This document shows positions 38,001 to 60,205 of a stretch of 64,000 bases of DNA, piece after piece; positions within the stretch are counted from its first letter, which is position 1, and each line of letters begins with the position of its first letter. Below the pieces are notes generated by a model. The model searched no databases. It was not told where the DNA came from and saw nothing but the letters and a program-made list of their open reading frames with translations. The stretch lies in the IMG/VR virus record IMGVR_UViG_3300017746_000005, positions 1-64,000 of that record. One strand, written 5' to 3'. Position numbers and translations under genes: made by a program. Source of the stretch: a virus.

Positions 38001-40156
38001 CTGGATTTATTGATCAGGATATCAACCAAGGTTACGATGACTTTGGATTCATCAATGCTACTACCGATTCTCTAACAAGAGTACCGTTTGGTCAGGTTGA
38101 TATTGAGCAACCTCCAACTCTTACGATCACCAGATTTATTCCTCAATGGAATGGTTCTGGTACTATTATTCCTTCTGGTACTGCGGAAGAAAGATTTATT
38201 ACCTCGGATGGCAATACCGTCCTATTCGACTTTATTGGTACTACTTCCCCAGAGAAGTTTATTGCTCAGACTCCAGAAGATACAATTCTCTTCGCAGTTT
38301 CTGGTGCAGCCGAAGACGAATCGGTCACCTTTGCCGAAGTTGGAATTGGAACTGTATATCTCTCTGGTATTGGAGTCGAGAGTGTCAGGTTTGTCGAGAT
38401 TGGAACTGGCATTCTTTCCTTCTCTGGTTCTGCATTGGAAAGATCCTCCATGGATCCTCCAGAAGGAACTTATCTACATGTATTCAGTGGAGCAGATGTT
38501 CGACCTGGACTTTCCTTTGCTTGTCAAACAACAAAGGCAACTCAACGTCTGTTTGGAGAACTATATCATCCAGACATCGACTTCACTCCACATTATGGTA
38601 TTGAGAGAAATATTGGTATTGAGACCGCATTTACACTTGCGAGTGGTGGTGGTCTCAATGAAGATGGTACTGGTCCTGGTATCGTCACTACCAGATATCT
38701 TCCCGATTATAAAGGACAAGGTGTTCTTACTCTTAGTGGTAAGGCTATTGGTCGTACCAATGCACCAATCTTTACCGATGGTACTATCTATATTCTCGGT
38801 ATTCATACCGCGGCTCAGGGAATCAGTTCTGGAAGAGAGACTGGTCTTTCCGAAAGTTATTCTCCTGGAACAATCTTTGGTGGTCCTGGTCAAGTCACCT
38901 TCAAGGGTGTCTCCCCGACTCGTCCAATTCAGGTATTTGGATATTATGGGGACGACAGAGATCCTGGAGCTGGAACGACTGGAGTCATTTCGATTACTCC
39001 TGCTCAGCAAGGAATCGAAATCAGATCCCTCAAAGATTATGTTGGTGTTGGAACTGCATACTTCTCTGGAGCATATTCCGATCTCGCTGCAACATTCAGA
39101 GAAATTGGAACGGGAGAACTCTTCAAGTTCTCTGCTCTATACGAAAGAAGAACCTTCGATTATATTGGATCTGGATTACTTACTGCATCTGGAACAACAG
39201 ATGCTCCAAGTTCTTTCCAGACTCCAGAAAGTACAGTCCTCTTTACAGTTTCTGGAGATATACGAGAAAGAGTCTCCCTGGACAACGAGACTGGTGGAAC
39301 GATTTCCATCTTCAACACAGAAAAAGTTGTTACTGGAATTACTCTTACTATCGCAACTGGAGGCACGTTCAGTCTCTTCTCCAGTGGTGCGGAATCGATT
39401 GTTATTCCTTCGGATACCACTACGGCTCTCTTCGATATCGAAGGAATTGCGAAAACCAAAGAAATTCAGGTCTACGGTTACTACGGAGATGATAGAGATC
39501 CTGGTACATCTGGAACTATCACAATTGTTGGTGAACTCACTCACCCACAGATTGACTATACTCCCGCAGAGGTTGGATTTGGAGATCTCACTTTCGTTGG
39601 CGAATCTATCGTCAAGGTCGATCTCAAGATCGTCGGAAAAGGAACTCTTCCAATATCTGGTTCTGCAACAGAGAAATTTGTCAGTGGTGCAGGCGAAGAT
39701 ACGATCCTCTTCTCCATCGACGGAAGTGCCGAAACGGCACTCAATCAAGTTTATGGATACTACGGAGACGACAGGGATCCAGGCACATCTGGAATTACTA
39801 CAATTTCTGGTGTTGGTATTACAAAACCAATACAGGTATTTGGATATTATGGAGACGACAAAGATCCTGGTACATCAGGAACATTTACATTCTCCAATAC
39901 ACCTCTTGTTCATCCAGAAGTCGATTACACTCCACATTACACAGGCACGGGAGTTGTATACTTTACTGGAGGAGTTTCCGTCAAGAGGACTTTCCCAGAA
40001 GTTGTTGGTTCTGGTTCTCTCTTCGGATTTGGTACAAAAGACGAAGCATTTGCGAGAACAACATACGTCGGTATCGGTGTTGCCAACTTCTTCGGAGCCT
40101 CATTTACGGAAACAATTGCGTTTGAACCAGCTCGTGTATACGTTACTATCATTTAA
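35060..40156 (+). CDS. tail-fibre-like repeat protein (1,698 aa)
   Basis: Beta-repeat protein without enzyme motifs. The N-terminus begins MAVYVYDTNKVDIFVSEDKG and has 'DYGNI...WYFGLI' elements. The body repeats 'GSG-x-L-x-x-SG-x-A-x-E-(R/S)' strands every 20-30 residues. Higher-order repeats are two 'FSQAPQST(I/V)FGLEGE' units, four 'GYYGDD(R/K)DPG' units and three 'HP-x-(I/V)DYTP' units. It follows a terminator and has no clear late box directly upstream, only GATAAGAATTAA. Position before the Mtd-N-like and 1,477-aa proteins suggests a long fibre or fibre-shaft part. From 38088 a long open second frame exists but is judged a shadow. Confidence 0.7.
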   Translation: MAVYVYDTNKVDIFVSEDKGLVTTSVTSTADYGNISDTADDDRGADNFNPWYFGLITDLADVLPFGKFDVGGNALPLISPAIPGSGLFRIEDIAEVSYVTPWRGSGTLFEIGGGLERLVIPDLGAAGPSPSIYGQAKESNTFVTVGSGILAQLSDKGETAKFNRYPWDATGTLTLSGYNGTLFPDDFIAVIKNVAKVKGVAPTRVIYDYSLDPDTKFDAENYGFVFNTSGGKFSDAEDLTFDRIITTNKDRSFSDDDQLEYENLGDITVNTQQKDLPVDILPDDLVDYQVNYQRTQIQGSGSGIGPTGGFDIGRHVKFGTGNGSREFYWRFDTTNSDYIKLSVIRGSDTNGGEDPDETQESLYLDRWTGSSWIRISTVCAYNDTTFNSLKEVSIPLTAQNRGNYFYRLRQDNSSNNANWDHYGVTSITYDLRQTFPIDVENNGVIERKLGGGLFMHDYQATGISASESIPFAYFGTGSLFALGELDPEKDVDQIFGYAGSGGFNVIGENFFSQAPQSTIFGLEGEISFSGSCVERFVPATVDNTVLFNQVGSANDKIIWQAGERKVTIRPIGFGSVLLSDTPPTSTATLVVSGAASNLERTFADGNVSLFDIGGDAGNPLSARFTPHFRSARGDIVLPDEDWGLIVNSATEFEDWGYIREVATTSIVFGDILSPFNYVQIGGQHYPSTDTFSVGESSLTKQTLGFTGIATFRISEDSSLERTFGYESSGITGIATYKAGINIFGYNWFSQAPQSTVFGLEGELTLSGSASESVTPFIEPQGTDGNFTFLSGSAEARSVAPSPAGDVYVGGTADIVFSPTVTGVGSATLRTGREEFQTYLRIIDPDMDLVLTTIGGGLVNEDFVKSYNESSIYYGPQDEDYGSILNAAAYGMGLNFSGAASDVETYDDETNTYDQDVLFSSDGLTYDQSTGGTSILPSFDKTESFPVNFGTTVVSEDLGTLTEGNPIPGGPAYDQYLYPNYTGFIDQDINQGYDDFGFINATTDSLTRVPFGQVDIEQPPTLTITRFIPQWNGSGTIIPSGTAEERFITSDGNTVLFDFIGTTSPEKFIAQTPEDTILFAVSGAAEDESVTFAEVGIGTVYLSGIGVESVRFVEIGTGILSFSGSALERSSMDPPEGTYLHVFSGADVRPGLSFACQTTKATQRLFGELYHPDIDFTPHYGIERNIGIETAFTLASGGGLNEDGTGPGIVTTRYLPDYKGQGVLTLSGKAIGRTNAPIFTDGTIYILGIHTAAQGISSGRETGLSESYSPGTIFGGPGQVTFKGVSPTRPIQVFGYYGDDRDPGAGTTGVISITPAQQGIEIRSLKDYVGVGTAYFSGAYSDLAATFREIGTGELFKFSALYERRTFDYIGSGLLTASGTTDAPSSFQTPESTVLFTVSGDIRERVSLDNETGGTISIFNTEKVVTGITLTIATGGTFSLFSSGAESIVIPSDTTTALFDIEGIAKTKEIQVYGYYGDDRDPGTSGTITIVGELTHPQIDYTPAEVGFGDLTFVGESIVKVDLKIVGKGTLPISGSATEKFVSGAGEDTILFSIDGSAETALNQVYGYYGDDRDPGTSGITTISGVGITKPIQVFGYYGDDKDPGTSGTFTFSNTPLVHPEVDYTPHYTGTGVVYFTGGVSVKRTFPEVVGSGSLFGFGTKDEAFARTTYVGIGVANFFGASFTETIAFEPARVYVTII
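36590..37341 (+). repeat. pair of 41-nt direct repeats, 711 bp apart
   Basis: 36590-36630 and 37301-37341 differ at one base (A/G). Both encode FSQAPQST(I/V)FGLEG in frame; 711 bp is 237 codons. Near-identity at DNA level suggests recent duplication or gene conversion inside the fibre-like gene. Confidence 0.85.
38926..39890 (+). repeat. four GYYGDD(R/K)DPG coding repeats
   Basis: Copies at about 38928-38978, 39463-39518, 39742-39800 and 39829-39890 encode Q-V-(F/Y)-GYYGDD-(R/K)-DPG followed by T-SG or A-GT. The spacing is irregular (about 535, 280 and 87 bp), so these are scattered modules rather than a simple tandem array. Confidence 0.8.
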
Positions 40157-40159
40157 CTT

Positions 40160-40167
40160 TATAAATA
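40160..40167 (+). promoter_or_regulatory. late promoter TATAAATA
   Basis: Perfect TATAAATA three bases after the 1,698-aa gene, 33 bp before the ATG at 40201. Confidence 0.65.
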
Positions 40168-40200
40168 AATCAGAAGCATACCTTTCATGAGTTCTGAATC

Positions 40201-40659
40201 ATGACAAAACAGGTTCAATTTAGAAAGGGAACCACAGCTGAACACTTTAACTTCACTGGGGCCCTTGCTGAAATTACTGTTGATACGGATAAAAATGTTG
40301 CTGTTGTCCATGACGGTGTAACTCCTGGTGGTTTTGAACTTTCAAGATCAAGATGGATTTATGTTGCTGGAGATACTACCACTGGTACTAACCAGAAATA
40401 TACGGTTGACTCCACATATAGTCCTACAGGATTGAGCGTTACCCTACCAACTCCTCGTGCAGTTGGTGACTGGGTTTGGATTGAGGATTTTGGTAATTTC
40501 ATGAGTATCAATCCAGTAAACATTATTTCGGATAAGTCTTTTGAGAACGGTCACCTCGTAAGAGAAAGTTCACCTTTTATTATGGATGTATCTGGGGCGT
40601 CTGTAACATTCATTTGGAATGGAAGTCTTTGGAAAGTGTTCAACAATAGAGGCAGTTAA
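40201..40659 (+). CDS. Mtd-N-like protein with gp10-like C-terminal module
   Basis: 152 residues. Residues 1-50 (MTKQVQFRKGTTAEH ... ITVDTDKNVAVVHDG) have the pattern of the N-terminal domain of the Bordetella phage major tropism determinant. Residues ~60-152 (KYTVDSTY ... VTLPTPRAVGDWVWIED ... WNGSLWKVF) resemble the 'V-T-L-P..P..GD.I.I.D' module of T4 gp10 and the C-terminus of the 1,477-aa protein. It is probably a baseplate or fibre-base adaptor. No reverse transcriptase or template repeat is present, so it is not evidence of diversity generation. Confidence 0.6.
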   Translation: MTKQVQFRKGTTAEHFNFTGALAEITVDTDKNVAVVHDGVTPGGFELSRSRWIYVAGDTTTGTNQKYTVDSTYSPTGLSVTLPTPRAVGDWVWIEDFGNFMSINPVNIISDKSFENGHLVRESSPFIMDVSGASVTFIWNGSLWKVFNNRGS

Positions 40660-40661
40660 AC

Positions 40662-41066
40662 ATGGCACTAACCCTAAGTAATTCAATTTCTGGTGAATTT
40701 TTACCATCAGAATCATCTGGATTTTTTGTATACGCATTAAGACGAGATGCGGAGAATATGCTGTACTTCTCTAAAGTTAGTGCTGCATCTACGGAATTGG
40801 GTGAGTTTTATCGGACTGATGGAACTGCAATTCCAGAATTTGGTGACGGTGTTGATTATGGTACTTATGATGTTGGTGTTGGTAAAACGTCAGTCATTCG
40901 TAATGACATCGCTACGGATAAAAAATCTTTAGATGATCCGAATGATAAATATCAACAGATCCGCTTTGATAGAAGGAACCTCTACTATTACATAGATGAT
41001 GATGGTTTTTTCGTCATCAGGTTCAATGGACCAGATTATGATTACAACTCTATCGGACCAAAATAA
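40662..41066 (+). CDS. hypothetical structural protein (134 aa)
   Basis: Follows the Mtd-N-like gene by 2 bp. The product is acidic, rich in Tyr/Asp (YYYIDDDGFFVIRFNGPDYD), and probably an all-beta domain. I recognise no family. Placement between two fibre-type genes suggests a small virion part. Confidence 0.6.
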   Translation: MALTLSNSISGEFLPSESSGFFVYALRRDAENMLYFSKVSAASTELGEFYRTDGTAIPEFGDGVDYGTYDVGVGKTSVIRNDIATDKKSLDDPNDKYQQIRFDRRNLYYYIDDDGFFVIRFNGPDYDYNSIGPK

Positions 41067-41084
41067 TAATTAAAAGGAGAAACA

Positions 41085-44000
41085 ATGGCTGAGTTTAGAC
41101 TTGGAAGAGTAAAATTCAACTGGACGGGTAATTGGACACCTTCCAAATCTTACCTGATTGACGATATCGCCAAGTTTGGTGGCAATACTTATGTAGCGGT
41201 CGCAAACCACACTTCCACTGGAAGCACTGCTAACTTCTACACCGATCTCGGTAATTGGAATCTTCATATTGAGGGTCTAGAGAACAGGGGTAGTTGGTCA
41301 GCAGATACGTATTACCGAATAAACGATCTCGTCACCTTCGGTAACGTAGTATATCGTGTTACAGTTGCACATACTTCTGTCGGTACATTTATCGATGAGA
41401 CGAAGGTTGTTCAGTATGTAGCAGGTTTTAATGCAGAAGGTGAGTGGCAAAACACCGAAGAGTATCAACAAGGGGACGTTGTTAATTACAACGGGTCTTC
41501 CTATGTTGCAATTACTACTTCTTCTGCTGGATTTAACCCACCAGAATACATCGGTTTAGGAACAGGTAGCAAGTGGAATATCCTTTCCGATGGTCTTGCT
41601 GGTTCTGCAGTAACATATACGGAAGGCACCTATTATAGAGGTGACATGATTCTGTTTGGTGGTAATACATATCGCCACAAACTTGGTATTACTACCAATG
41701 TTTCTCCTACTCAAGCTGGACTAGGAACTGTTGGAGATGCTCAGTATAATGGTAACATTGTCTGGGATCTTCTGGTCAAAGGCATTAGCTTTGTTGGTAA
41801 TTTCTCCACAACATTCGCATATCATCCAGGTCATGTCGTTAGATATGGATCTAACTCATATGTCTCAGTTGGTGCTTCTTTCGTAAATATTAATCCAATT
41901 GCTGGTGTAGGAACATACTGGGAAACATTAGCTGCTGGTGACTCATCTGCTGCTCTTAATGCTAAGGGTGATATTCTTACTTATAACGGTGGTCCTGCTA
42001 GAATCGGTATTGGTTCTACTGGTTATGCACTTGCAGTTCAAAGTGATGGAGTTCCTGGATACGAAATTGTTGGTAACCAGACAAGAATCTATTATGTTGA
42101 CTCCGAAGATGGACTAGATGCCAACAACGGTCTTGCACCTAACCTCGCATTTAAGACAATTAAGGCGGCTTGTGCTGCTGCACGTCCTGATAACAATATC
42201 ACTGACTTCCAGTATACTGCCTCAACTGGTGTTGCAACTATCACATCTCCTGGTCACGGTCTAGCAAACGTTGGTACGTTTGTTCAGTTGGCTGAGATTG
42301 AATTTGAATGTCTGTCTGGTGGTAATGTCTTCAACATCTTGGGCATGACCTATAACAAGGCTGTTGGTCTTGCAACTATTACTGCTATTGGTCTTGGTGC
42401 TGCTCCAGAAATTGGAATTGGTGCTACTGTTAGATTGAGAAATCTTGGTATTTCATTCACTGGTAATGCAAACTTTGATCACCAGTTCTCCAGTGCAGAA
42501 GAGGATGCCCTCATCACTGGTGGTGACTACATTCATAACTTTGTGGCTGCTACTTCGGGTGCAGTTAACGTTGTAACAGGAACTCTTTCTGGATCCCAGT
42601 TAACTCCAACAAACGCTGTTTATACCGCAACTAGTGGTGAATTGGAGATCACTGTTGGTTCTCACGGTCTATCGATTAGTGACACCATCAGCTTCGATGC
42701 CAACTCAATGACATTCACTTGTCAGATGGACGGTGGTAGTTCTAATAAGACATATCCAAGAACAACTGACCCCGCATACGGCGTCAACCTCTCAATCAAC
42801 GCAATTACTGCAAACACTTTCACAGTTAACGTTGGACCTTCTCCTATCGTCAACTTCCAAGTTGGTGGTGCAACATATAACCAGGTAACTGGCGATATCG
42901 TAATGGATGTCGGTGTTCATCAACTTGATGTTGGTACATCGGTCAAACTTCTTACCGAAGGTCTGGTCTTCAAGTGTTCCATGGACGGTTACCTAACCGA
43001 CCACGCATATCCAAGAGCAACTGCTGGTGATGGTTCTCCCGATCCCGCATACAATACTGCTCTGTCGATTACTGCTGCAACAACTACTACCATCACGGTT
43101 AATGTTGGTACTGCAAGTTCTTCTCAGACAATTACTGGTAAGTTCCCTGCAGTTCATACTCAGGCATCTACTTTCCAGTTCCCAGTTCAGGCAGTTCCCG
43201 ATAACAACTCTATTGTAGTTAACGTCGGTGTTTCCAATACTGATTATCTCTATGTTTCTGGTGGTACTGCGTTTGTTGGTGTTACAACAACGGTTTATCC
43301 CGATAAGGTCTCCAAGTCTTACTTTGAGGTTCTTCAGGTTATCGATGCCAATAGAATTAGAGCTAACGTTGGTATCTCCACAATCAATCACACATATGTA
43401 AGAGGCGGTCATCTAACTGACCTAACTCCTGCTATCTTGAAACTGTCTGCTTCTCAGTTCTATGAGCAACTGCCAATCAAGGTTCCTCCTTTCACCTCGA
43501 TTATCGGTAACTCACTAAGAGGTACTCAGATTCTACCTGCTTCTGGTTTCTCTGACGACACTGTTACTCCTAACAACAGATCTCAGATGTTCCAGTTGTC
43601 TGATGCTACTACACTTCAGGCAATGTCCATGAAGGGAATGGAAGGATTCCATTATGATCCTACCGCACCTTTCGTACTAGATAATAGTAACATTAGAACT
43701 GGTCTTGGAACAACTGCTGCTGGTACTGTTTGTGCCTTCAACCCAGATTCACCAATCAATAATAAGTCTCCTTATGTTAAGGACTGTACTGTATTCTCTG
43801 ATAACGCAAGTGACTTTGGTCGCTTCGGTGGTGGTGCAGTCGGCGTATTCGCTGATGGTGGTGTCCATTCCGAAGGTGCAAAATCAATGGTATTTGACTC
43901 CTTCACCCAGGTATCTTCCGATGGTGCTGGATATATCCTAGATAAGAGTGCAATCTCCGAGATTGTTTCTTGCTTCACCTACTACTGTAAGTGGGGATAC

Positions 44001-45518
44001 TACTCTGGTGGCGGATCTAGAATTCGTTCTGTTGGTGGTAACAACTCTTATGGTGATTATGGTGTTATTGCATCTGGATTCTCTACAGAAGAGACCCCAA
44101 GAGAAACAAGAGTATTTGGTTCTCTGATGGAAGTAAATGGTGTAAGTAAGTCTGGTACTCTGTCTATTGGTGCTACCATGTTTGGTGCAACCTCTGGTGC
44201 TCGTGGATGGTTCATTAACGATCAAACCGCTGCAGACAGAATTTACTTCAAGTATCATCCTGGTTATGGTTCGGTTGGTCTTGGAACCACTGGATTCGTA
44301 GATGGTGAGATTGTCTGGTTCGGTGATGGCGGCGACAGTCAGTCTGGTGTTGGTTCTATCACAGTTTCTGGTGTCACTTCATCTATTGGTGGACAGAGAG
44401 GCACAATTCTAGAAGTTGATAATATTTCTTCTGCGCTTTTAGTTGGTGACGCACTTGGATTCTCTACATCCTCTTACGGTGATGACAATCTATTCTATAT
44501 CATTAACACCGTCACGAATGTTGCTACTGCGTCTACATACACGTATTACACAACTAGTGGTATTCAAACGGTAACATATCAAAATCGTGCTACTCTGACA
44601 ATCTCTCCAGAGAAGACTACTGGAACATGGGATACCAGAGAGGTGACTGGTGCAGGTTCTACAGTTTCAGTTAGAACTCTATTCTCACAATGTCGCCTAA
44701 CAGGTCATGACTTCTTGAGTGTTGGTACTGGTAACAAGGTAGAAACCAATTATCCCGATGTTGATCAAACTCAGATTATTCAGGGTAATGAGACTAATAT
44801 CTTCGGTCCTGGTAAGGTATTCTTTGTTTCCACTGACCAAGGTGGTAACTTCAGAGTCGGTCAATTCTTCTCCGTTGATCAGTTGACTGGTCGTGCAACC
44901 TTGGACGCTTCTGCGTTCAACCTGTCTGGTTTGACTGAACTGAGACTGGGTGCAATCGGTGGTCAAGTTGGTGAGGCGATTAACGAATTCTCCTCCGACG
45001 AAACTATGTCTGGCATGTCTAACAACGCATGTCCTACTGAGGCTGCAGTTGCTGGATTCCTCCGTCATGGTTCAATGGGATCTAAGGCAATGACACCACC
45101 AGTTGGTACTACTGCTGAGAGACCTGGTGGTGTTGATGAAGAGTTCAACACTGGTGCTCTAAGATTCAACACTGACCTCGGTTCTATTGAGTTCTATAAT
45201 GGATCTATTTGGACACAACCTGGACTTAAGACCTACTCAACGGTATCGAGTTCAGGCGCGGTCGCGGCGGGTCAGGAGTACTTTGTTAACACCACTGGTG
45301 GTACTTTAACTCTGACTCTACCTGGAACCCCCGCACTGGGAGATACCATTAGATTCTATGATGTTGCTAAGACCTTTGATTCCAACGCCTTGGTGATTGG
45401 ACGTAACGGAAAACCAATCCAAGGTGATACTTCCGATATGACGGTCAATCTTGAAGGGGCTTCATTTGAACTCGCTTTCTCGGGTGATACCTACGGTTGG
45501 AGATTGTTCTCCGTCTGA
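41085..45518 (+). CDS. tail-fibre-like protein with carbohydrate-binding repeats (1,477 aa)
   Basis: The start has a perfect SD (AAGGAG 41074-41079, 5-nt spacing). Residues ~10-290 hold about five 'G-x-W-x-x-x-x-x-Y-x-x-x-D-x-V-x-(F/Y)-G-x-x-(Y)' repeats like chitin/cellulose-binding CBM5/12 modules. Around residue 345 YYVDSEDGLDANNG starts a pectate-lyase-type beta-helix signature. Two FTC...YP...DP repeats (~545-660) are shared with the 2,492-aa protein. Residues ~805-1020 look like a right-handed beta-helix (GAVGVFADGGVHSEG, GGGSRIRSVGGNNSYG). The C-terminus is a gp10-like GD-x-I-x-F-x-D module. C-ending codons are frequent, suggesting high expression. Likely a host-recognition fibre or spike. 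Confidence 0.75.
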   Translation: MAEFRLGRVKFNWTGNWTPSKSYLIDDIAKFGGNTYVAVANHTSTGSTANFYTDLGNWNLHIEGLENRGSWSADTYYRINDLVTFGNVVYRVTVAHTSVGTFIDETKVVQYVAGFNAEGEWQNTEEYQQGDVVNYNGSSYVAITTSSAGFNPPEYIGLGTGSKWNILSDGLAGSAVTYTEGTYYRGDMILFGGNTYRHKLGITTNVSPTQAGLGTVGDAQYNGNIVWDLLVKGISFVGNFSTTFAYHPGHVVRYGSNSYVSVGASFVNINPIAGVGTYWETLAAGDSSAALNAKGDILTYNGGPARIGIGSTGYALAVQSDGVPGYEIVGNQTRIYYVDSEDGLDANNGLAPNLAFKTIKAACAAARPDNNITDFQYTASTGVATITSPGHGLANVGTFVQLAEIEFECLSGGNVFNILGMTYNKAVGLATITAIGLGAAPEIGIGATVRLRNLGISFTGNANFDHQFSSAEEDALITGGDYIHNFVAATSGAVNVVTGTLSGSQLTPTNAVYTATSGELEITVGSHGLSISDTISFDANSMTFTCQMDGGSSNKTYPRTTDPAYGVNLSINAITANTFTVNVGPSPIVNFQVGGATYNQVTGDIVMDVGVHQLDVGTSVKLLTEGLVFKCSMDGYLTDHAYPRATAGDGSPDPAYNTALSITAATTTTITVNVGTASSSQTITGKFPAVHTQASTFQFPVQAVPDNNSIVVNVGVSNTDYLYVSGGTAFVGVTTTVYPDKVSKSYFEVLQVIDANRIRANVGISTINHTYVRGGHLTDLTPAILKLSASQFYEQLPIKVPPFTSIIGNSLRGTQILPASGFSDDTVTPNNRSQMFQLSDATTLQAMSMKGMEGFHYDPTAPFVLDNSNIRTGLGTTAAGTVCAFNPDSPINNKSPYVKDCTVFSDNASDFGRFGGGAVGVFADGGVHSEGAKSMVFDSFTQVSSDGAGYILDKSAISEIVSCFTYYCKWGYYSGGGSRIRSVGGNNSYGDYGVIASGFSTEETPRETRVFGSLMEVNGVSKSGTLSIGATMFGATSGARGWFINDQTAADRIYFKYHPGYGSVGLGTTGFVDGEIVWFGDGGDSQSGVGSITVSGVTSSIGGQRGTILEVDNISSALLVGDALGFSTSSYGDDNLFYIINTVTNVATASTYTYYTTSGIQTVTYQNRATLTISPEKTTGTWDTREVTGAGSTVSVRTLFSQCRLTGHDFLSVGTGNKVETNYPDVDQTQIIQGNETNIFGPGKVFFVSTDQGGNFRVGQFFSVDQLTGRATLDASAFNLSGLTELRLGAIGGQVGEAINEFSSDETMSGMSNNACPTEAAVAGFLRHGSMGSKAMTPPVGTTAERPGGVDEEFNTGALRFNTDLGSIEFYNGSIWTQPGLKTYSTVSSSGAVAAGQEYFVNTTGGTLTLTLPGTPALGDTIRFYDVAKTFDSNALVIGRNGKPIQGDTSDMTVNLEGASFELAFSGDTYGWRLFSV

Positions 45519-45547
45519 TACGTGACTATCTTTGTTATGATTTTCTT

Positions 45548-45555
45548 TATAAATT
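45548..45555 (+). promoter_or_regulatory. late promoter-like TATAAATT/CTAAATA
   Basis: TATAAATT at 45548-45555 and CTAAATA at 45561-45567 lie 20-40 bp before the ATG at 45588, in the 69-bp gap after the 1,477-aa gene. Confidence 0.45.
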
Positions 45556-45587
45556 TTTATCTAAATAAAACTAATCTAGGATCGTAA

Positions 45588-46370
45588 ATGGCCAACTATA
45601 GATCATATAAAAAAGTCTCTGCGGCCCAGGTTCCAGATGGGTCCATCACCATTGAAAAGCTTTCTACTGGTGTTGGACCGAGCTGGAATGTAAAGACAAT
45701 TTATGGTGATCCAGGAGTACTCACTTCTGGTTGTTGCTGTAATTGGACAGTACCGACTGGAGTTGGCAAAGTTACTTGGGAACTCTGGGGTGCTGGTGGT
45801 AATGGACATGGTGCATGTTCTTGCAACAGATGTCATCACTACAGAGGTGCTGGCGGTGGCAGTTTCAACACCAAGACGATTTCTACCGCAGGAAGTTGTC
45901 AATATACAGTATGTGCTGCTGGCGTCTATAGATGCTGTTCTAGAGAATGTGTTGGATGTCACGGATGTGCATCATATGTAAATGGATACAACCTAACTAA
46001 CTTCTGTGCGGTGGGTGGCGGTAGAGGAGAGGCTAATACAGATTGGTCTAACCTCTGTCATTCTACTTATCACACCTGTATGCAAGCAGGAAGTTATGGT
46101 GGAGACTTTGCAGTCGCACCCCATTGGCCAGGATTCAGTGGTCACTGGAACTGTCATTGTGGACAAAGTAATACTCAGACTTGTACTGGTGCTGCTCCAT
46201 TCATTGGAATTGGTAATAAAACCCATAGTGCCTACTGTTGGATGCGCTGTGGTTGCTGGACGACTCCATATGGTGCTGGTGGTCAAGGTGCAATGACCTC
46301 ATATTGTGAAAGATGCTGCGGACAAGGCGGTACTGGTGGATCTGGAATAGTACGTATCACATACATGTAA
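45588..46370 (+). CDS. Gly/Cys-rich adhesin-like protein, copy 1
   Basis: 260 residues, of which I count 25 Cys. The N-terminus MANYRSYKKVSAAQVPDGSI is shared with the two following genes and is probably an attachment segment. The core starts W-T-V-P-T-G-V, then a strand ending LWGAGGNGHGACSC, as in the glycine-rich domain of phage fibre tips. It ends GQGGTGGSGIVRITY. Cys clusters include GCCC, ACSCNRC, YRCCSRECVGC, CWMRCGC and CERCC. It is probably a fibre-tip adhesin. SD AGGA at 45578-45581. Confidence 0.75.
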   Translation: MANYRSYKKVSAAQVPDGSITIEKLSTGVGPSWNVKTIYGDPGVLTSGCCCNWTVPTGVGKVTWELWGAGGNGHGACSCNRCHHYRGAGGGSFNTKTISTAGSCQYTVCAAGVYRCCSRECVGCHGCASYVNGYNLTNFCAVGGGRGEANTDWSNLCHSTYHTCMQAGSYGGDFAVAPHWPGFSGHWNCHCGQSNTQTCTGAAPFIGIGNKTHSAYCWMRCGCWTTPYGAGGQGAMTSYCERCCGQGGTGGSGIVRITYM

Positions 46371-46383
46371 TCAAGGGGAATCA

Positions 46384-47184
46384 ATGGCCAATTACGCAAG
46401 TTACAAAAAAATTAACGGAGATCAACTAGATAATGGAATCTTAGGATCTACAAAATTCTCCACTTCCCCAACCTCAACATTCGGAGTAAAGTGGTTTTAC
46501 GGAACCATGTGCCGATGTTCACCTGGATGTTGCTGCGCTTGGGTTGTTCCTACTGGAGTTAAAAAACTCTGGATCCAGGCTTGGGGTGCTGGTGGTAATG
46601 GACATGGTGCATGTTCATGTAGTAGATGTCATCACTACAGAGGTGCTGGCGGTGGACTGTATAACAGTGTGATGTTAGATACCACCGCTGGATGTACATA
46701 TTCTGTATGTGCAGCTGGTGTATATCCATGCCTCTCTAGGGAATGTGCGGGATGTAACGGATGCTCATCATATGTAAATGGGTATAATCTAAGTAACTTC
46801 TGTGCATACGGTGGATCTTGTGGTCACGCCAATACCTCATGGGAGACCGCCTGTAATGCAGAATGGCACTGCTGTGTGGCTCCTACAAGTAATGGTGGTC
46901 AGTTTGGTATGGGTACTCTACGAGACACTTGGACTATGGGTGGATATTCTACCAACCGTAGTCGTTGGTGTCACTGTTATGTTCATATGACTACTCCAAC
47001 TTCTGCTCCACTCATTGGAACTGATGTTCACCAATCACTTCGTGAATGTTGGGTTCGTTGTGGTTGCTGGATTGTTCCTTATGGTCATGGTGGTCAAGGT
47101 GCAATGACTACTTATTGTGGTTCAAGTTGCTGCGGACAAGGCGGTACTGGTGGTGGCGGACTCGTCAAAATCACTTACTTCTGA
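46384..47184 (+). CDS. Gly/Cys-rich adhesin-like protein, copy 2
   Basis: 266 residues with 27 Cys, paralogous to its neighbours over the full length. The N-terminus, the W-x-VP-TGV strand, GAGGNGHGACSC, SYVNGYNLSNFCA, C-W-V-R-C-G-C-W and the GQGG end are conserved. The middle (about residues 145-200) varies most. The variable middle between conserved Cys blocks suggests exposed loops. Preceded by AAGGGGA, 13 bp after copy 1. Confidence 0.75.
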   Translation: MANYASYKKINGDQLDNGILGSTKFSTSPTSTFGVKWFYGTMCRCSPGCCCAWVVPTGVKKLWIQAWGAGGNGHGACSCSRCHHYRGAGGGLYNSVMLDTTAGCTYSVCAAGVYPCLSRECAGCNGCSSYVNGYNLSNFCAYGGSCGHANTSWETACNAEWHCCVAPTSNGGQFGMGTLRDTWTMGGYSTNRSRWCHCYVHMTTPTSAPLIGTDVHQSLRECWVRCGCWIVPYGHGGQGAMTTYCGSSCCGQGGTGGGGLVKITYF

Positions 47185-47190
47185 TAAATA
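47184..47190 (+). promoter_or_regulatory. late promoter-like ATAAATA
   Basis: ATAAATA begins at the last base of copy 2 and lies 20 bp before copy 3, so copy 3 may have its own late promoter as well as read-through. Confidence 0.45.
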
Positions 47191-47210
47191 ACTATTAAAT
47201 AGGACTCCAA

Positions 47211-48008
47211 ATGGCTAATTACGCTTCTTATAAACAGATTAGTAACTCACAAATTGTTGATGGGTCTATTACTAACACTCAACTAGCGAGTGGAGCATTC
47301 TCCAATTGGAATGTTAAGTGGATATATGGTGATCCTACGGCAATGACTTCTGGATGTTGCTGCGCTTGGACTGTTCCTACTGGAGTACAACGAATTTATT
47401 GGGAACTCTGGGGTGCTGGAGGAAACGGACACGGAACATGTTCTTGTAATAGATGTTATAACTGGCATGGAGCCCAGGGTGGATACTATAACGCAAAAAC
47501 CATTGGAACAAAAGCTGGTTGTGCATATTCTGTATGTGCTGGTGGTGTTTATCGTTGTTGTTCTAGAGAGTGTGTTGGATGTGATGGATGTGTTTCATAT
47601 GTAAATGGATATAATTTAAGTAACTTCTGTGCAATGGGTGGCACTAGAGGTTGTGCTACCAACTCTTGGTCTACAACTTGCTATAGTTCTATGGCTAAGT
47701 GTTGTTTTCAACCTGGTGCTCATGGAGGAGACTTCGGAATGGGTAACCATGGTGGTGGTACTAGAAAGGGATATGGTTCTGCTGGTTGGAACTGTCATTG
47801 TTACTTCAATGAAAGTAGACCCACAGGAGCTCCATTCTTGGGTACTATGGCAGTTAATTCTACTGTTAGACATTGTTGGGTTCGTTGTGGATGCTGGAGA
47901 GCTCCATACGCACACGGTGGTCAGGGTGCAGTCACATCTTACTGTGAAAGATGTTGTGGACAAGGTGGAACAGGTGGAAGTGGTCTTGTTAAAATTAGTT
48001 ATATGTAA
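47211..48008 (+). CDS. Gly/Cys-rich adhesin-like protein, copy 3
   Basis: 265 residues with 26 Cys. Same plan as copies 1 and 2; it is closer to copy 1 in the Cys blocks (YRCCSRECVGC, SYCERCCGQGG) and to copy 2 in SNFCA and CWVRCGCW, which suggests exchange among copies. The region around residues 140-200 differs. An intrinsic terminator follows at 48049-48073. Confidence 0.75.
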   Translation: MANYASYKQISNSQIVDGSITNTQLASGAFSNWNVKWIYGDPTAMTSGCCCAWTVPTGVQRIYWELWGAGGNGHGTCSCNRCYNWHGAQGGYYNAKTIGTKAGCAYSVCAGGVYRCCSRECVGCDGCVSYVNGYNLSNFCAMGGTRGCATNSWSTTCYSSMAKCCFQPGAHGGDFGMGNHGGGTRKGYGSAGWNCHCYFNESRPTGAPFLGTMAVNSTVRHCWVRCGCWRAPYAHGGQGAVTSYCERCCGQGGTGGSGLVKISYM

Positions 48009-48087
48009 TTCTGGATGTTGTGGGGCAGGATGTCCCGATTGTCCATTTAGACCTCGAAAGGGGTCTTTTTTTTATGTTTTGTTATAA
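47986..48087 (+). CDS. possible short Cys-motif ORF overlapping the terminator
   Basis: In a different frame from copy 3, TTG at 47986 opens a 33-codon frame, preceded by GGAAG. It encodes NSGCCGAGCPDCPFRPRKG, which resembles the CCG-x-GC-x-x-CP motif of small Cys-motif proteins (DUF5522-like). The ORF runs through the terminator hairpin and uses a weak start codon. It may be a real tiny gene, a remnant, or chance. I treat it as tentative. Confidence 0.25.
   Translation: MLKLVICNSGCCGAGCPDCPFRPRKGSFFYVLL
48049..48073 (+). terminator. intrinsic terminator with GAAA loop
   Basis: AGACCTC (48049-48055) pairs with GGGGTCT (48060-48066) around a GAAA tetraloop, with one G-U pair, followed by an 8-T tract (48066-48073). 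It ends the adhesin transcripts. Confidence 0.9.
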
Positions 48088-48090
48088 ATA
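48083..48090 (+). promoter_or_regulatory. late promoter TATAAATA
   Basis: Perfect TATAAATA ten bases after the terminator T-tract, 34 bp before the ATG at 48125. The terminator-promoter pair isolates the chaperone-like gene. Confidence 0.7.
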
Positions 48091-48124
48091 ACTGGGAAGG
48101 ATGTTAACCTGAAAAAATCTAACC

Positions 48125-48892
48125 ATGGCAACAGAAATTATTTCCCACGATTGGAACATGCCCGTTCCAAACGATTTCCTAAGAGATCACTCATATTCAG
48201 AAGGCAAAACAAGAGCCGTTACTTATGATGGTCCCGATAAAATTTGGCTACAAATTGGTGCTGATGGCACCGAAGTACATGGGCCCCTGACCGAAGATGA
48301 CATGGCTGATGGAAGACCAATTCCAGCCGATGTAACTCAAATGTTTGAAGTGGATTGCACCGAGTATCCACTCATCTGCCAACTGAGAGGACCAGTCATC
48401 GATGAAAAAGAAGAAAGCCGAGACATGGAGGATGACGTTGCTCATCCAGATTGTCCCGATATGACTGCTCAGGGGTACAGACAATTAAAGTATAATCAAC
48501 ATTTGTTTATCGAAGATCTTTATGATGGTGCATCGGTAAGAATCGTTGATGGAGCTCCAACAGTACATGCATTCAGTGTTAATGAGAAACTTATTGGTAG
48601 AGCCGATGATCTAACTTGGGATGAGATCAGAGATCATAGAAATGGAATTCTCAGTGGTAGTGATGGTCAAATTGCAGAGGACATGCCCGAGGACATGAAG
48701 ACTATATGGAAAGCATATCGTCAGAAGTTGAGAGATCTTCCCGCTGAATTAGCTGCAGCTGGTGTTTCTCCAAATATGGCATACTATATGTTCCCTGACG
48801 TACCATACTTTACTAATCCTCCATCTGACCCAGAAGAACCTGCAGATGCATCTGCCGATTGGGCGCCCCCAAGTAGTGGTGTTATTGGTTGA
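48125..48892 (+). CDS. tail-assembly-chaperone-like protein
   Basis: 255 residues, acidic. Residues ~165-230 (LTWDEIRDHRNGIL, then W-KAYRQKLRDLPAEL and FPDVPYF) match the Phage_tail_APC pattern 'R..R...L...D....W..YR..LRDLP.......WP..P' of tail-fibre assembly chaperones. The N-terminal part is beta-rich with DGPDKIWLQIGADG, and the C-terminal tail is Pro/Asp-rich. Position directly after the fibre and adhesin genes supports a fibre-assembly role. Bounded by a late promoter and a terminator. Confidence 0.65.
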   Translation: MATEIISHDWNMPVPNDFLRDHSYSEGKTRAVTYDGPDKIWLQIGADGTEVHGPLTEDDMADGRPIPADVTQMFEVDCTEYPLICQLRGPVIDEKEESRDMEDDVAHPDCPDMTAQGYRQLKYNQHLFIEDLYDGASVRIVDGAPTVHAFSVNEKLIGRADDLTWDEIRDHRNGILSGSDGQIAEDMPEDMKTIWKAYRQKLRDLPAELAAAGVSPNMAYYMFPDVPYFTNPPSDPEEPADASADWAPPSSGVIG

Positions 48893-48912
48893 GTCTGAGG
48901 TAGATATATAAT
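48885..48912 (+). promoter_or_regulatory. possible sigma70-like promoter ahead of the island
   Basis: TTGGTT (48885-48890), 16-bp spacer, TATAAT (48907-48912). Initiation would fall at about 48919, right at the terminator hairpin. The -10 box is perfect and the -35 weak, in AT-rich DNA, so this is tentative. Confidence 0.3.
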
Positions 48913-48919
48913 ATTATAT

Positions 48920-48941
48920 GGGAGCTAAGGCTCCCTTTTTT
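48920..48941 (+). terminator. intrinsic terminator before the accessory island
   Basis: GGGAGC (48920-48925), TAAG loop, GCTCCC (48930-48935), then six Ts (48936-48941). Confidence 0.85.
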
Positions 48942-48954
48942 AATGGGAAGAAAT

Positions 48955-49587
48955 ATGTTTGAACTAAATGAATCTCGTAAGACGACAGTAAAAAAAATAT
49001 ATGATCATGCTAAAAATGACCTAGGGCATGTATGGAGATATGTAATTACTATAGATGATTTCTATAAAAATCCCGATGAAGTACGAAAAATTGCTCTTAA
49101 TGGTACTCGCAAGACCGATAAGAAATATACGGGAAATCTTATAGGATCAAGAGTTATTGAAAATATAGAAGGATTTGATGAGAATTTAAAATCAGTTTTT
49201 GAAAAAGCATGTCAATTTGATTTTTGGAATCCAGAGTACGATGATACTTTTTGGAGAGATACTAAATTTATGGCAAATGTAACTAATGGAAATGATATTG
49301 AAACTAGATTCAATGAGAAAAAACATACATATACATTCCATAAAGATTCCACTAATTATAAGTGGGCTGCAGTAATCTACCTCAATAAAGATCAGGAATG
49401 TGATGGAGGAACTAATTTTTATGCTTGGATGCCAGACGATCCATCAGCCGTACCAAGATTAGAATATGAATCTAAAATGAAATACAATAGGATGGTGTTA
49501 TATGAATGTGATCACATGCATGGAGCAGTTCTTAAAAGGGGTATGTTTACTGAGTTTCCAAGACTTGTACAAGTATTATTCATGTAA
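48955..49587 (+). CDS. DUF6445-like (2OG-Fe(II)-like) protein
   Basis: 210 residues from the ATG at 48955, which has GGGAAG in front; the ATG at 48943 directly abuts the terminator and lacks a site. The pattern YVITIDDFYKNPDEVRKIAL, then H129-K-D131, WAAVIYLNKDQECDGGTNFY, distal H189 (DHMHGA) and R203 (PRLVQVLF) is that of DUF6445 proteins. Their H-x-D...H...R layout is that of 2OG-dependent oxygenases. A relative lies on the other strand at 58641. Substrate unknown. First gene of the accessory island. Confidence 0.65.
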   Translation: MFELNESRKTTVKKIYDHAKNDLGHVWRYVITIDDFYKNPDEVRKIALNGTRKTDKKYTGNLIGSRVIENIEGFDENLKSVFEKACQFDFWNPEYDDTFWRDTKFMANVTNGNDIETRFNEKKHTYTFHKDSTNYKWAAVIYLNKDQECDGGTNFYAWMPDDPSAVPRLEYESKMKYNRMVLYECDHMHGAVLKRGMFTEFPRLVQVLFM

Positions 49588-49597
49588 TTTTGGTAGA

Positions 49598-49604
49598 CTA
49601 AATA
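49598..49604 (+). promoter_or_regulatory. late promoter-like CTAAATA
   Basis: CTAAATA in the 63-bp gap, 46 bp before the ATG at 49651. A TATACT hexamer (49627-49632) nearby could instead be part of a sigma70 promoter, but no good -35 is evident. Confidence 0.35.
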
Positions 49605-49650
49605 CATCAGAATAGATCATTCTTTATTATACTGTTTGGAGTTTTTTTAT

Positions 49651-50826
49651 ATGAGATCCAAAGCATTTTTTGTCAATGGAGGAGCCGGTAGAGTGCTTTG
49701 CTCCATTCCTGCATTTGAAAAATATGCAGAAACACATGATGATTTTATCATCGTTGCTGAAGGAGGAACTGACTTTTTTAAAGGTCATCCAACTTTAGAT
49801 GGTAAAGTTTATGATATGTGGCACAAGAATTTGTTTCAGGAACATTTGAAACATAGAGATTGTGTTTCACCAGAACCATATAGAATGTGGCATTACTACA
49901 ATCAAAAATGTAGTTTGACACAGGCTTTTGATATGGAAATCAATGGTCTAGATGAACCCAGAGAACTTCCCAAACCAACTCTCAATCTCACTAAGATGGA
50001 GGTTATTGCTGGTTACAATATGATTCAAGAAGTGAAATCAGTAAGTGGTAAAGATAAAGTCGTAGTAATCCAGCCTTTCGGTAGAGGTGTTCAGCAAGTT
50101 GGAGAGTTTATCGCAGATGCTTCGTCAAGAAGTATGTCTCTCGTAAACACTGTAGATATTATCAATGATCTTAAAAAAGATTATGGTATCATTGTAATGT
50201 CTGAACTCCAGTTTCCAGTAGAAGAAAATGAAGAGAAGTCAAAATATAAAATTGCAAGACCTCAAATTGAGGACATTAGAGTATGGGCTGCTATTATAGA
50301 TGTTGCTGATCACTTTATAGGTGTAGATAGTATCGGTCAACATATTTGCAAGTCTCTTGACAAAAAAGCAACTGTAGTTATTGGATCTACTTATCCAGTT
50401 AATATTTCTTATCCAGAAGATAGTAACTTTGATCTAATTGATATTGGTTTAGACAGAAGGAAATATTCTCCAATTAGATTAACTATGGATGAAACTGTTG
50501 ATCGGTATAATGATCAATCCATGGAAATGTCTGCGGAACAAGTCAAATCTATTTTGCGTTCTGCTAGAAAACATTTAGGTAAACCCGTTTCATTTAAAGG
50601 AACTTATACTCCTCCACAAAGCACAGAATGTCCTACATGCCCGCCTGGAACTTCAACAACTCCTGCAATTGCACCAGGAAATACTGCAGTGTTGCCAGGA
50701 AGTGCTGCATTGATGCCACAACCTCAGTGGAATCAACCACCTGCAAATATTGTAGAAAAACCTAAAAAACCAAAAGTAGGTTTCAAAAACGAAGTAAAGA
50801 ATCTACTAAAAACTGATATTAATTGA
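49651..50826 (+). CDS. GT9/heptosyltransferase-like GT-B protein
   Basis: 391 residues from ATG 49651 (GGAG at 49638-49641); a TTG at 49636 is less likely. FVNGGAGRVLCSIPAFEKY at the N-terminus and the C-domain block VADHFIGVDSIGQHICKSLD, then TVVIGSTYP, follow the GT9 plan (N-terminal 'G.GD.l...P', C-terminal 'D.....S...H.....'). Heptosyltransferases use ADP-heptose, and HldE- and HldD-like genes are nearby. The last ~75 residues are Pro-rich (TPPQSTECPTCPPG) with a basic end, which is unusual for GT9. Donor unproven. Confidence 0.6.
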   Translation: MRSKAFFVNGGAGRVLCSIPAFEKYAETHDDFIIVAEGGTDFFKGHPTLDGKVYDMWHKNLFQEHLKHRDCVSPEPYRMWHYYNQKCSLTQAFDMEINGLDEPRELPKPTLNLTKMEVIAGYNMIQEVKSVSGKDKVVVIQPFGRGVQQVGEFIADASSRSMSLVNTVDIINDLKKDYGIIVMSELQFPVEENEEKSKYKIARPQIEDIRVWAAIIDVADHFIGVDSIGQHICKSLDKKATVVIGSTYPVNISYPEDSNFDLIDIGLDRRKYSPIRLTMDETVDRYNDQSMEMSAEQVKSILRSARKHLGKPVSFKGTYTPPQSTECPTCPPGTSTTPAIAPGNTAVLPGSAALMPQPQWNQPPANIVEKPKKPKVGFKNEVKNLLKTDIN

Positions 50827-59386: not shown

Positions 59387-60205
59387 ATGGCTAAGCCCTC
59401 CAGTAGAGAAGCATTGAAGCAGTATTGCCTCAGGAAACTCGGAAAGCCAGTATTGGAAGTCAATGTCGATGATGATCAAATCGAAGACTTGATAGACGAT
59501 GCACTCCAATTATATCATGAAAGACATGGTGAGGGAATAGATAGAGTATTTTTAAAACATAAGTTGACCGAGGCAGAAAGAACTGCTATGGTTGGAATTG
59601 CTCAAACAACAACTGTTACTGATACTTTTGGCGGGATTTCTTCTGCAGATTATACAGAACAAGCTAACTACCTTCCATTACCAGACACTATTATTGGAGT
59701 CAATAAGATATTTAAAATGGACTCATCCACCTTATCGGCGGGGATGTTCAATATAAAATATCAACTCTTCCTTAATGATTTATACTACTACGGCGCAATA
59801 GATTTATTGAACTATAGTCAAACAAAATCATACTTGGAGACTATAGATTTTCTTCTTAATCCAGAAGTCCAAATAAGATTTAACAAAAAGAACAGTAGAT
59901 TATACATGGATATAAATCTAAAAGAACTCACAGAAGATCATTTTCTAATATTAGATTGTTATAGAGTTGTAGATCCAGAAAGTGAAACTGCTGTATATAA
60001 TGATCTATGGATTAAGAGGTATACAACATCTCTAATTAAAAGACAATGGGGACAAAACCTAATTAAGTTCCAAGGAGTTAAGCTTCCTGGTGGACTTGAG
60101 ATGAACGGTAGACAACTATTTGATGACGCTCAACGAGAATTAGAAGATCATGAACAAAAGTTGATAACTGAATATGCCATGCCACCCCTAGATATGATAG
60201 GATAA
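59387..60205 (+). CDS. gp13: neck protein gp13 (head completion)
   Basis: Connects the filled head to the tail with gp14. It has 272 residues (T4 309). LKQYCLRKLGKPVLEV ... QIEDLIDDALQLYHE matches T4 'LKDYILRRLGAPIINV ... QIYDCIQRALELYGE', and VKLPGGLEMNGRQLFDDAQ matches T4 'MMLPGGVTIDGQRLIEEAR' near the C-terminus. Its TAA overlaps gp14's ATG. Confidence 0.94.
   Translation: MAKPSSREALKQYCLRKLGKPVLEVNVDDDQIEDLIDDALQLYHERHGEGIDRVFLKHKLTEAERTAMVGIAQTTTVTDTFGGISSADYTEQANYLPLPDTIIGVNKIFKMDSSTLSAGMFNIKYQLFLNDLYYYGAIDLLNYSQTKSYLETIDFLLNPEVQIRFNKKNSRLYMDINLKELTEDHFLILDCYRVVDPESETAVYNDLWIKRYTTSLIKRQWGQNLIKFQGVKLPGGLEMNGRQLFDDAQRELEDHEQKLITEYAMPPLDMIG

What the first reader, a model, noticed from the sequence alone, without database searches (positions are those of the whole stretch)
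45588..48008. Three tandem glycine-rich adhesin paralogues with about 10% cysteine
Each 260-266-aa protein has 25-27 Cys in conserved clusters (GCCC, CSCxRC, RECxGCxGC, CWxRCGCW, CCGQGG), far above other proteins here. They share an N-terminal segment and a C-terminal GG end but differ in the middle. Glycine-rich fibre-tip domains are known; such Cys density is not usual for cytoplasmically assembled phage parts and suggests metal (Zn or Fe-S) or disulphide stabilisation. Mosaic similarity among copies suggests recombination among alternative receptor-binding tips.
Basis: partly seen in the sequence, partly recalled or inferred. Interest (0 to 1): 0.75.

Follow-up and report, generated by a model that had tools for sequence, protein, structure and literature searches.

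The report
Cysteine-rich cyanophage fibre-tip trio
A marine cyanobacterial virus carries three neighbouring genes for small, probably tail-fibre-tip proteins in which about one residue in ten is cysteine; many related marine viruses keep the same trio unchanged in number and in cysteine positions, which suggests three parts of one stabilised receptor-binding tip rather than interchangeable spares.

Summary
In detail: three tandem genes (260, 266, 265 aa; 25, 27, 26 Cys; the rest of the window averages 0.67% Cys). They belong to unnamed family phrog_4205. The fold is a glycine-rich fibre-tip domain: Pfam Gly_rich_2, and Foldseek hits to the cyanophage Pam3 fibre gp24. A tail-fibre-assembly-like gene follows, as in Pam3. 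Eighteen Cys columns are at least 97% conserved in 197 homologues. The trio is not a set of recombining alternative tips: every complete locus has exactly three copies, and copies 1, 2 and 3 are separate old lineages along their whole length, the variable middle included. I found a second Cys-rich class, also always three (S-CAM1 type), a third always two with the assembly gene between them (P-SSM2 type), and a rarer three-copy form. The classes probably multiplied separately. I infer a receptor-binding head in which cysteines replace part of the usual glycine packing, probably as disulphides in the mature virion, and in which the copies are different obligate subunits, perhaps a heterotrimer. 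Presence in virions, disulphide or metal, and stoichiometry are untested. New variant of a known kind; no description found in the papers searched.

The parts
45588..46370 (+). copy 1, 260 aa, 25 Cys; Gly_rich_2 fold, residues 52-259
   Evidence: PF21722 E 5.6e-8, above its cut-off; phrog_4205 E 1.3e-53
46384..47184 (+). copy 2, 266 aa, 27 Cys
   Evidence: PF21722 E 0.002, below cut-off; phrog_4205 E 6e-51
47211..48008 (+). copy 3, 265 aa, 26 Cys; structure predicted
   Evidence: phrog_4205 E 8e-57; pLDDT 78, pTM 0.77; Pam3 fibre 7ypx, E 3e-5
48125..48892 (+). probable tail-fibre assembly chaperone for the copies (phrog_9740; Phage_tail_APC in the C-terminal helices)
   Evidence: PF16778 E 1.2e-8; phrog_4912 'tail fiber assembly' E 4.6e-8; homologues in class I, II and III loci; N-terminal beta, C-terminal helices, pLDDT 92
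41085..45518 (+). upstream tail fibre, 1477 aa, with CBM_5_12 modules; its last ~95 residues are a small domain that is a separate gene in S-CAM1; candidate shaft for the tip
47184..47191 (+). ATAAATAA, late-promoter-like, just upstream of copy 3
   Evidence: 8 sites in the window, all on the + strand, most shortly upstream of a gene
48049..48066 (+). intrinsic-terminator-like hairpin after the trio
48084..48091 (+). ATAAATAA, late-promoter-like, upstream of the chaperone-like gene

Best explanation
The three genes encode the receptor-binding head pieces of a tail fibre of a T4-like marine cyanophage. Each has a short attachment/oligomerisation N-terminus followed by a beta-sandwich whose loops form a glycine-rich tip domain, as in the fibre gp24 of cyanophage Pam3, and they are folded with help from the tail-fibre-assembly-like protein encoded just downstream. 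Part of the glycine packing of that fold is replaced by a dense, nearly invariant cysteine network, placed mostly in the loops, which most likely forms disulphides in the mature or released virion and makes the tip rigid and resistant. The three copies are not spares: they are old, distinct, co-inherited subunits of one assembly, most simply a head that contains one of each (a heterotrimer) or a fixed set of heads. Shown here: conservation, fixed copy number, fold class, gene context. Inferred: location in the virion, disulphides, hetero-assembly, receptor binding.
For: Fold: Pfam Gly_rich_2; model pLDDT 78 matches Pam3 fibre gp24 (7ypx E 3e-5; 7yfw 1.9e-4), the Bxb1 tail tip and, more weakly, the ALK glycine-rich domain, and many viral glycine-rich-domain proteins. 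[quoted passage not shown] Context: the window holds gp25-, gp6-, gp9/10- and gp8-like baseplate genes and tail fibres upstream and an assembly-like gene downstream, with 78 class I, 74 class II and 50 class III homologues in the fetched loci. Fixed copy number: three in every complete class I and class II locus, two in every complete class III locus. Copies 1-3 form separate clades except in two small divergent lineages. The classes cluster apart (support 1.0, 0.99, 0.71), so threefold sets probably arose separately. Copies and chaperone diverge together (r 0.87-0.95 in class I; partial r 0.50-0.89 given a neighbouring gene). Cys: 18 columns at least 97% conserved in class I, and most copies of all classes are about 8-12% Cys; in the copy 3 model most Cys lie in loops or at strand ends. 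Disulphide networks in a phage tail are known (Milano; Cys 2.1% in its structural proteins, 0.9% in T4; PMC10811340).
Against: No virion proteomics was found for a phage that carries the family. Cys numbers are odd in two copies, and no clean one-to-one Cys pairing came out of co-loss analysis. Assembly takes place in a reducing cytoplasm. Class III has only two copies, so a strict 1:1:1 head is not universal. The model of the chaperone-like protein had no significant Foldseek match, Pam3 gp25 included. TM-scores to Pam3 gp24 are only about 0.4. Co-divergence also follows from co-inheritance alone.
Confidence: 0.55

Rival explanations
1. Three separate homotrimeric heads: each copy caps its own fibre and binds its own receptor, giving a fixed three-receptor host range. 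No hetero-assembly.
For: The window has several long structural and fibre ORFs; the middle segments differ strongly between copies and are conserved among orthologues; Pam3 gp24 is a homotrimer (PMC9608196).
Against: It does not explain why sets are never reduced or enlarged in about 150 complete three-copy loci, why two classes that probably multiplied separately both settled on three, or why there is one chaperone-like gene for three copies.
Confidence: 0.33
2. The cysteines bind metal (Zn or Fe-S) and the tip is a metal-stabilised head.
For: CxC, CxxC and CCC clusters; odd Cys counts in two copies; in one small divergent lineage C221 is replaced by His.
Against: 25-36 Cys would need 6-9 sites in about 200 residues; no known metal-binding family matched; the His replacement is confined to one lineage.
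Confidence: 0.2
3. Interchangeable alternative tips that recombine to shift host range.
For: Weak excess of short shared synonymous tracts between paralogues within genomes; copy 1 and copy 2 of the window share such a tract in the core.
Against: Copy identity is kept in all segments, copy number never varies, and copies diverge together.
Confidence: 0.07
4. Not a virion part: a cysteine-rich protein made during infection, for example for metal or redox handling.
For: No virion proteomics found; the Cys density is nearer to metal-handling proteins than to usual phage structural proteins.
Against: Fold and gene context are those of fibre tips with an adjacent assembly factor; late-promoter-like sites upstream of copy 3 and of the chaperone-like gene.
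Confidence: 0.08

Closest known systems
Cyanophage Pam3 tail fibre gp24 with chaperone gp25 (PDB 7ypx, 7yfw; PMC9608196)
   Same: Beta-sandwich plus glycine-rich loop tip at the fibre end; adjacent fibre-assembly gene; significant Foldseek match (E 3e-5).
   Different: Pam3: one gene, homotrimer, 39% Gly in the tip domain, no disulphides mentioned in the paper, variable distal tip. Here: three paralogues, about 17% Gly plus 10% Cys, and conserved Cys-containing loops.
phrog_4205 / phrog_35878 (unnamed PHROGs; S-SSM7, S-CAM1, S-CAM3, P-SSM2 hypothetical proteins)
   Same: These are the same proteins or Cys-rich homologues; the window copies match phrog_4205 over their full length.
   Different: Both are listed as unknown function; I found no mention of their Cys content or fixed multiplicity in the papers searched.
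Syn9 gp38 and gp36 (glycine-rich, Cys-poor) after its tail fibre genes
   Same: Glycine-rich proteins after a tail fibre; gp38 is among the fold matches.
   Different: 0.8% and 2.5% Cys, with poly-Gly runs instead.
Salmonella phage S16 gp38 adhesin
   Same: Glycine-rich loops presenting the receptor-binding tip of a T4-like fibre (as described in PMC9608196).
   Different: Not among the 50 best PDB fold matches shown; single gene.
Agrobacterium phage Milano disulphide network (PMC10811340)
   Same: Cysteines used to stabilise a phage tail, receptor-binding proteins included.
   Different: 2.1% Cys in structural proteins against about 10% here; mainly sheath, tube and baseplate.
C1q A/B/C chains (from general knowledge)
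   Same: Working analogy only: three paralogous TNF/C1q-like subunits making one heterotrimeric head.
   Different: No homology claimed; animal protein.

Membership tests
Glycine-rich fibre-tip domain (Gly_rich_2 / Pam3 gp24 type) | Profile match to PF21722 above the curated cut-off | tested here: met
   Copy 1 passes (33.5 bits against 24.3); copy 2 below cut-off, copy 3 no match; one S-CAM1 copy (40.4) and one L065 copy (26.6) pass
Glycine-rich fibre-tip domain (Gly_rich_2 / Pam3 gp24 type) | Same fold as a solved glycine-rich fibre tip | tested here: met
   Foldseek 7ypx E 3e-5, probability 1.0, TM about 0.42-0.44
Glycine-rich fibre-tip domain (Gly_rich_2 / Pam3 gp24 type) | Mounted at the fibre end and receptor-binding | not testable with these tools
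   No proteomics or binding data found
phrog_4205 | Full-length profile match | tested here: met
   E 6e-51 to 8e-57 over the whole length, all three copies
Tail-fibre assembly (Tfa/APC) family, gene 48125-48892 | Phage_tail_APC domain | tested here: met
   PF16778 35.1 bits against cut-off 26.6
Tail-fibre assembly (Tfa/APC) family, gene 48125-48892 | Fold like Pam3 gp25 | tested here: inconclusive
   Same order of domains (N-terminal beta, C-terminal helices) but no Foldseek match with E below 0.001
Disulphide-stabilised virion protein | Cysteines paired in the virion | not testable with these tools
Metal-binding Cys cluster protein | Match to a known Zn or Fe-S family | tested here: not met
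   No such Pfam or PHROG match
Recombining alternative tips | Copies exchange segments or vary in number between relatives | tested here: not met
Hetero-oligomer of paralogues | Fixed number, distinct old lineages, joint divergence | tested here: met
   (necessary features, not sufficient)
Hetero-oligomer of paralogues | Physical hetero-assembly | not testable with these tools
   No complex prediction was available

The most novel reading that the evidence does not exclude
Three different paralogous subunits, always encoded together, assemble into one obligate heterotrimeric, cysteine-crosslinked fibre head; the solved relative (Pam3 gp24) is a homotrimer, and the three-subunit solution would have arisen at least twice in marine phages.
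Probability: 0.33. Interest if true: 0.82.

Novelty: new variant of a known kind. Interest (0 to 1): 0.62.

Why it matters
T4-like cyanophages are among the most abundant viruses in the ocean, and how they recognise Prochlorococcus and Synechococcus is poorly known. This names candidate receptor-binding heads in well-known laboratory phages (S-SSM7, S-CAM1, S-CAM3, P-SSM2) whose genes are still 'hypothetical', links them to a fold with a solved structure, and shows an unusual chemistry (about 10% conserved Cys) and a fixed paralogue number that can be tested directly by virion proteomics and co-expression. It would also be a case of phage structural proteins using cysteine at a density not usual for cytoplasmically assembled virions.

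Tried and rejected
Recombining alternative tips: rejected by segment trees and constant copy number. Pairing cysteines by co-loss along trees: too few events, no clean partners. PDB sequence search with the family profile: no real hit. Foldseek of the chaperone-like model: no significant hit. Literature for Cys-rich cyanophage fibre tips or for phrog_4205: nothing found; the 2010 comparison of T4-like cyanophages (PMC3037559, searched by terms only) does not contain the word cysteine, and its virion proteomics covers S-SM1, S-PM2 and Syn9; no homologue of copies 1 or 3 was found in those phages. Bacterial genomes: only five contigs, all in marine metagenome-assembled genomes and carrying the same phage-type module, so probably phage contigs binned with bacteria. 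Rfam: nothing in 40000-50000.

Full report
WHAT IS THERE. Three same-strand ORFs, 45588-46370, 46384-47184 and 47211-48008, encode 260, 266 and 265 aa with 25, 27 and 26 Cys. The other 34 window proteins average 0.67% Cys (highest 3.1%); the chance of such counts is about 1e-20 or less. The window is a structural block of a T4-like cyanophage: gp25-, gp6-, gp9/10- and gp8-like baseplate genes, long structural and fibre ORFs, an Mtd_N protein and a tail fibre, then the trio, an assembly-like gene, and a cluster of carbamoyltransferase, sugar-kinase and oxygenase genes, with a neck-protein gene at the end. Its closest annotated relative found is Synechococcus phage Sf-FS3 (82-85% protein identity), then S-SSM7.

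EXPRESSION SIGNALS. ATAAATAA occurs 8 times in the window, about the number expected by chance, but all 8 lie on the + strand and most sit shortly upstream of a gene start; they include sites before copy 3 (47184) and before the assembly-like gene (48084). This fits the late-promoter motif of T4-like phages (general knowledge). A terminator-like hairpin follows the trio at 48049-48066. Taken together this suggests late genes; it is suggestive only.

FOLD. Copy 1 matches Pfam Gly_rich_2 above cut-off, and all three match phrog_4205, of unknown function. An AlphaFold2 model of copy 3 from 88 homologues (pLDDT 78, pTM 0.77) matches the fibre of cyanophage Pam3 best (7ypx E 3e-5), then the Bxb1 tail tip and, weakly, the ALK glycine-rich domain, and many viral glycine-rich-domain proteins. 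In Pam3 this is the receptor-facing end of a homotrimeric fibre, folded by a dedicated chaperone, gp25 (PMC9608196). TM-scores are only about 0.4, so the match supports fold class, not detail. In the copy 3 model most of the 26 Cys lie in loops or at strand ends.

CYSTEINES ARE CONSERVED. In 197 distinct class I homologues, 18 Cys columns are at least 97% Cys. The most variable parts are residues about 11-30 and 151-220, while the Cys-containing loops around 71-82, 111-140 and 221-230 are conserved (entropy). The variable part, not the Cys network, is the candidate for receptor specificity.

FIXED COPY NUMBER. In viral contigs, 173 stretches encode a relative of the family (80 loci kept). Every complete class I locus has exactly three tandem copies: 80 of 81, the exception running off a contig end. 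Two distant Cys-rich classes were found: class II (S-CAM1/S-CAM3 type, N-terminus M..LRxLL; three copies in 73 of 77 contigs, the four others cut by contig ends, and in both reference phages) and class III (P-SSM2 type; two copies with the assembly-like gene between them; 53 of 55 contigs, the other two cut, and in P-SSM2 and AG-345-F15). A fourth arrangement (copy, assembly gene, copy, copy, assembly gene; 21, 23 and 31 Cys) lies on two contigs of a marine metagenome-assembled genome. Most copies carry about 8-12% Cys. The Cys filter used could in principle hide a low-Cys extra copy; for class I the profile search showed none.

COPIES ARE OLD AND DISTINCT. Copies 1, 2 and 3 form separate clades apart from two small divergent lineages. 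Trees of five separate segments keep them apart (3-7 label changes against about 93 for shuffled labels), and orthologues are more alike than paralogues of one genome in every segment. A weak excess of shared synonymous tracts (35 of 186 within-genome pairs against 11 of 186 controls at p<0.05) suggests occasional short gene conversion in the conserved core. Between classes, paralogues cluster with their own class (support 1.0 for class I, 0.99 for class III, 0.71 for class II), so sets of three probably arose at least twice, although concerted evolution could mimic this. Copies and the assembly gene diverge together (r 0.87-0.95 in class I; partial r 0.50-0.89 after allowing for a neighbouring gene).

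CHAPERONE. The gene at 48125-48892 has a Phage_tail_APC domain and a beta-then-helical predicted fold at pLDDT 92, as described for Pam3 gp25. A profile built from it finds 78 class I, 74 class II and 50 class III homologues in the fetched loci. Foldseek gave no significant match to any solved structure, so identity with gp25 is not shown.

MECHANISM. Shown: conserved fold class, Cys network, gene context, fixed multiplicity. Inferred: these are fibre heads; the cysteines, largely in loops and replacing part of the glycine packing, are paired in the mature virion (precedent: Milano, PMC10811340); and the copies are non-redundant subunits, perhaps one of each per head. Three separate homotrimeric heads remains a serious rival. 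Metal binding is not excluded: two copies have odd Cys counts, and one lineage shows Cys to His at one position. A co-loss analysis of Cys columns did not settle it.

NOVELTY. A Cys-rich variant of a known fibre-tip fold, widespread in marine cyanophages and, as far as the searched papers go, not described. The heterotrimer reading would be new if shown.

Noticed in passing
window 41085-45518: The tail fibre upstream of the trio carries CBM_5_12 carbohydrate-binding modules (PF02839, E 4.7e-15, three stretches), a family that includes chitin-binding modules.
   Followed up: no
window 40201-40659: Small protein with a Major tropism determinant N-terminal domain (Mtd_N, E 2.5e-12); no search for a diversity-generating reverse transcriptase was made.
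   Followed up: no
window 60205-62496: Neck-type protein (T4_neck-protein) with a Laminin_G_3 lectin-like domain in the same ORF.
   Followed up: no
window 3683, 14957, 24975, 32880, 33913, 40161, 47184, 48084: All eight ATAAATAA sites are on the + strand and most lie just upstream of genes, as expected for late promoters, although the number is not above chance.
   Followed up: partly
L226:4926-9035 and L227:4492-8601: Fourth arrangement of Cys-rich copies (copy, assembly gene, copy, copy, assembly gene) on contigs filed under Neomarinimicrobiota; probably phage contigs binned with a bacterium.
   Followed up: partly
L223, L224, L225: Class I relatives on contigs of metagenome-assembled genomes filed under Rhodobacteraceae, Flavobacteriales and Actinomycetota; three unrelated groups suggest misbinned phage DNA.
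   Followed up: no
L065, L066, L067, L077: A divergent class I lineage in which C79, C221 and C244 are mostly replaced (W, H, N) and in which the three copies group with each other rather than with the main copy clades.
   Followed up: partly
L090:12932-17328 (Syn9 gp35-gp39): After its tail fibre genes Syn9 has glycine-rich proteins (gp36, gp38, gp39) with few Cys; gp39 looks like a frameshifted double copy of gp38.
   Followed up: no
window 48943-49587 and 681-1352: 2OG-Fe(II) oxygenase-like genes, one directly after the assembly-like gene; that neighbour is also present in Sf-FS3.
   Followed up: no
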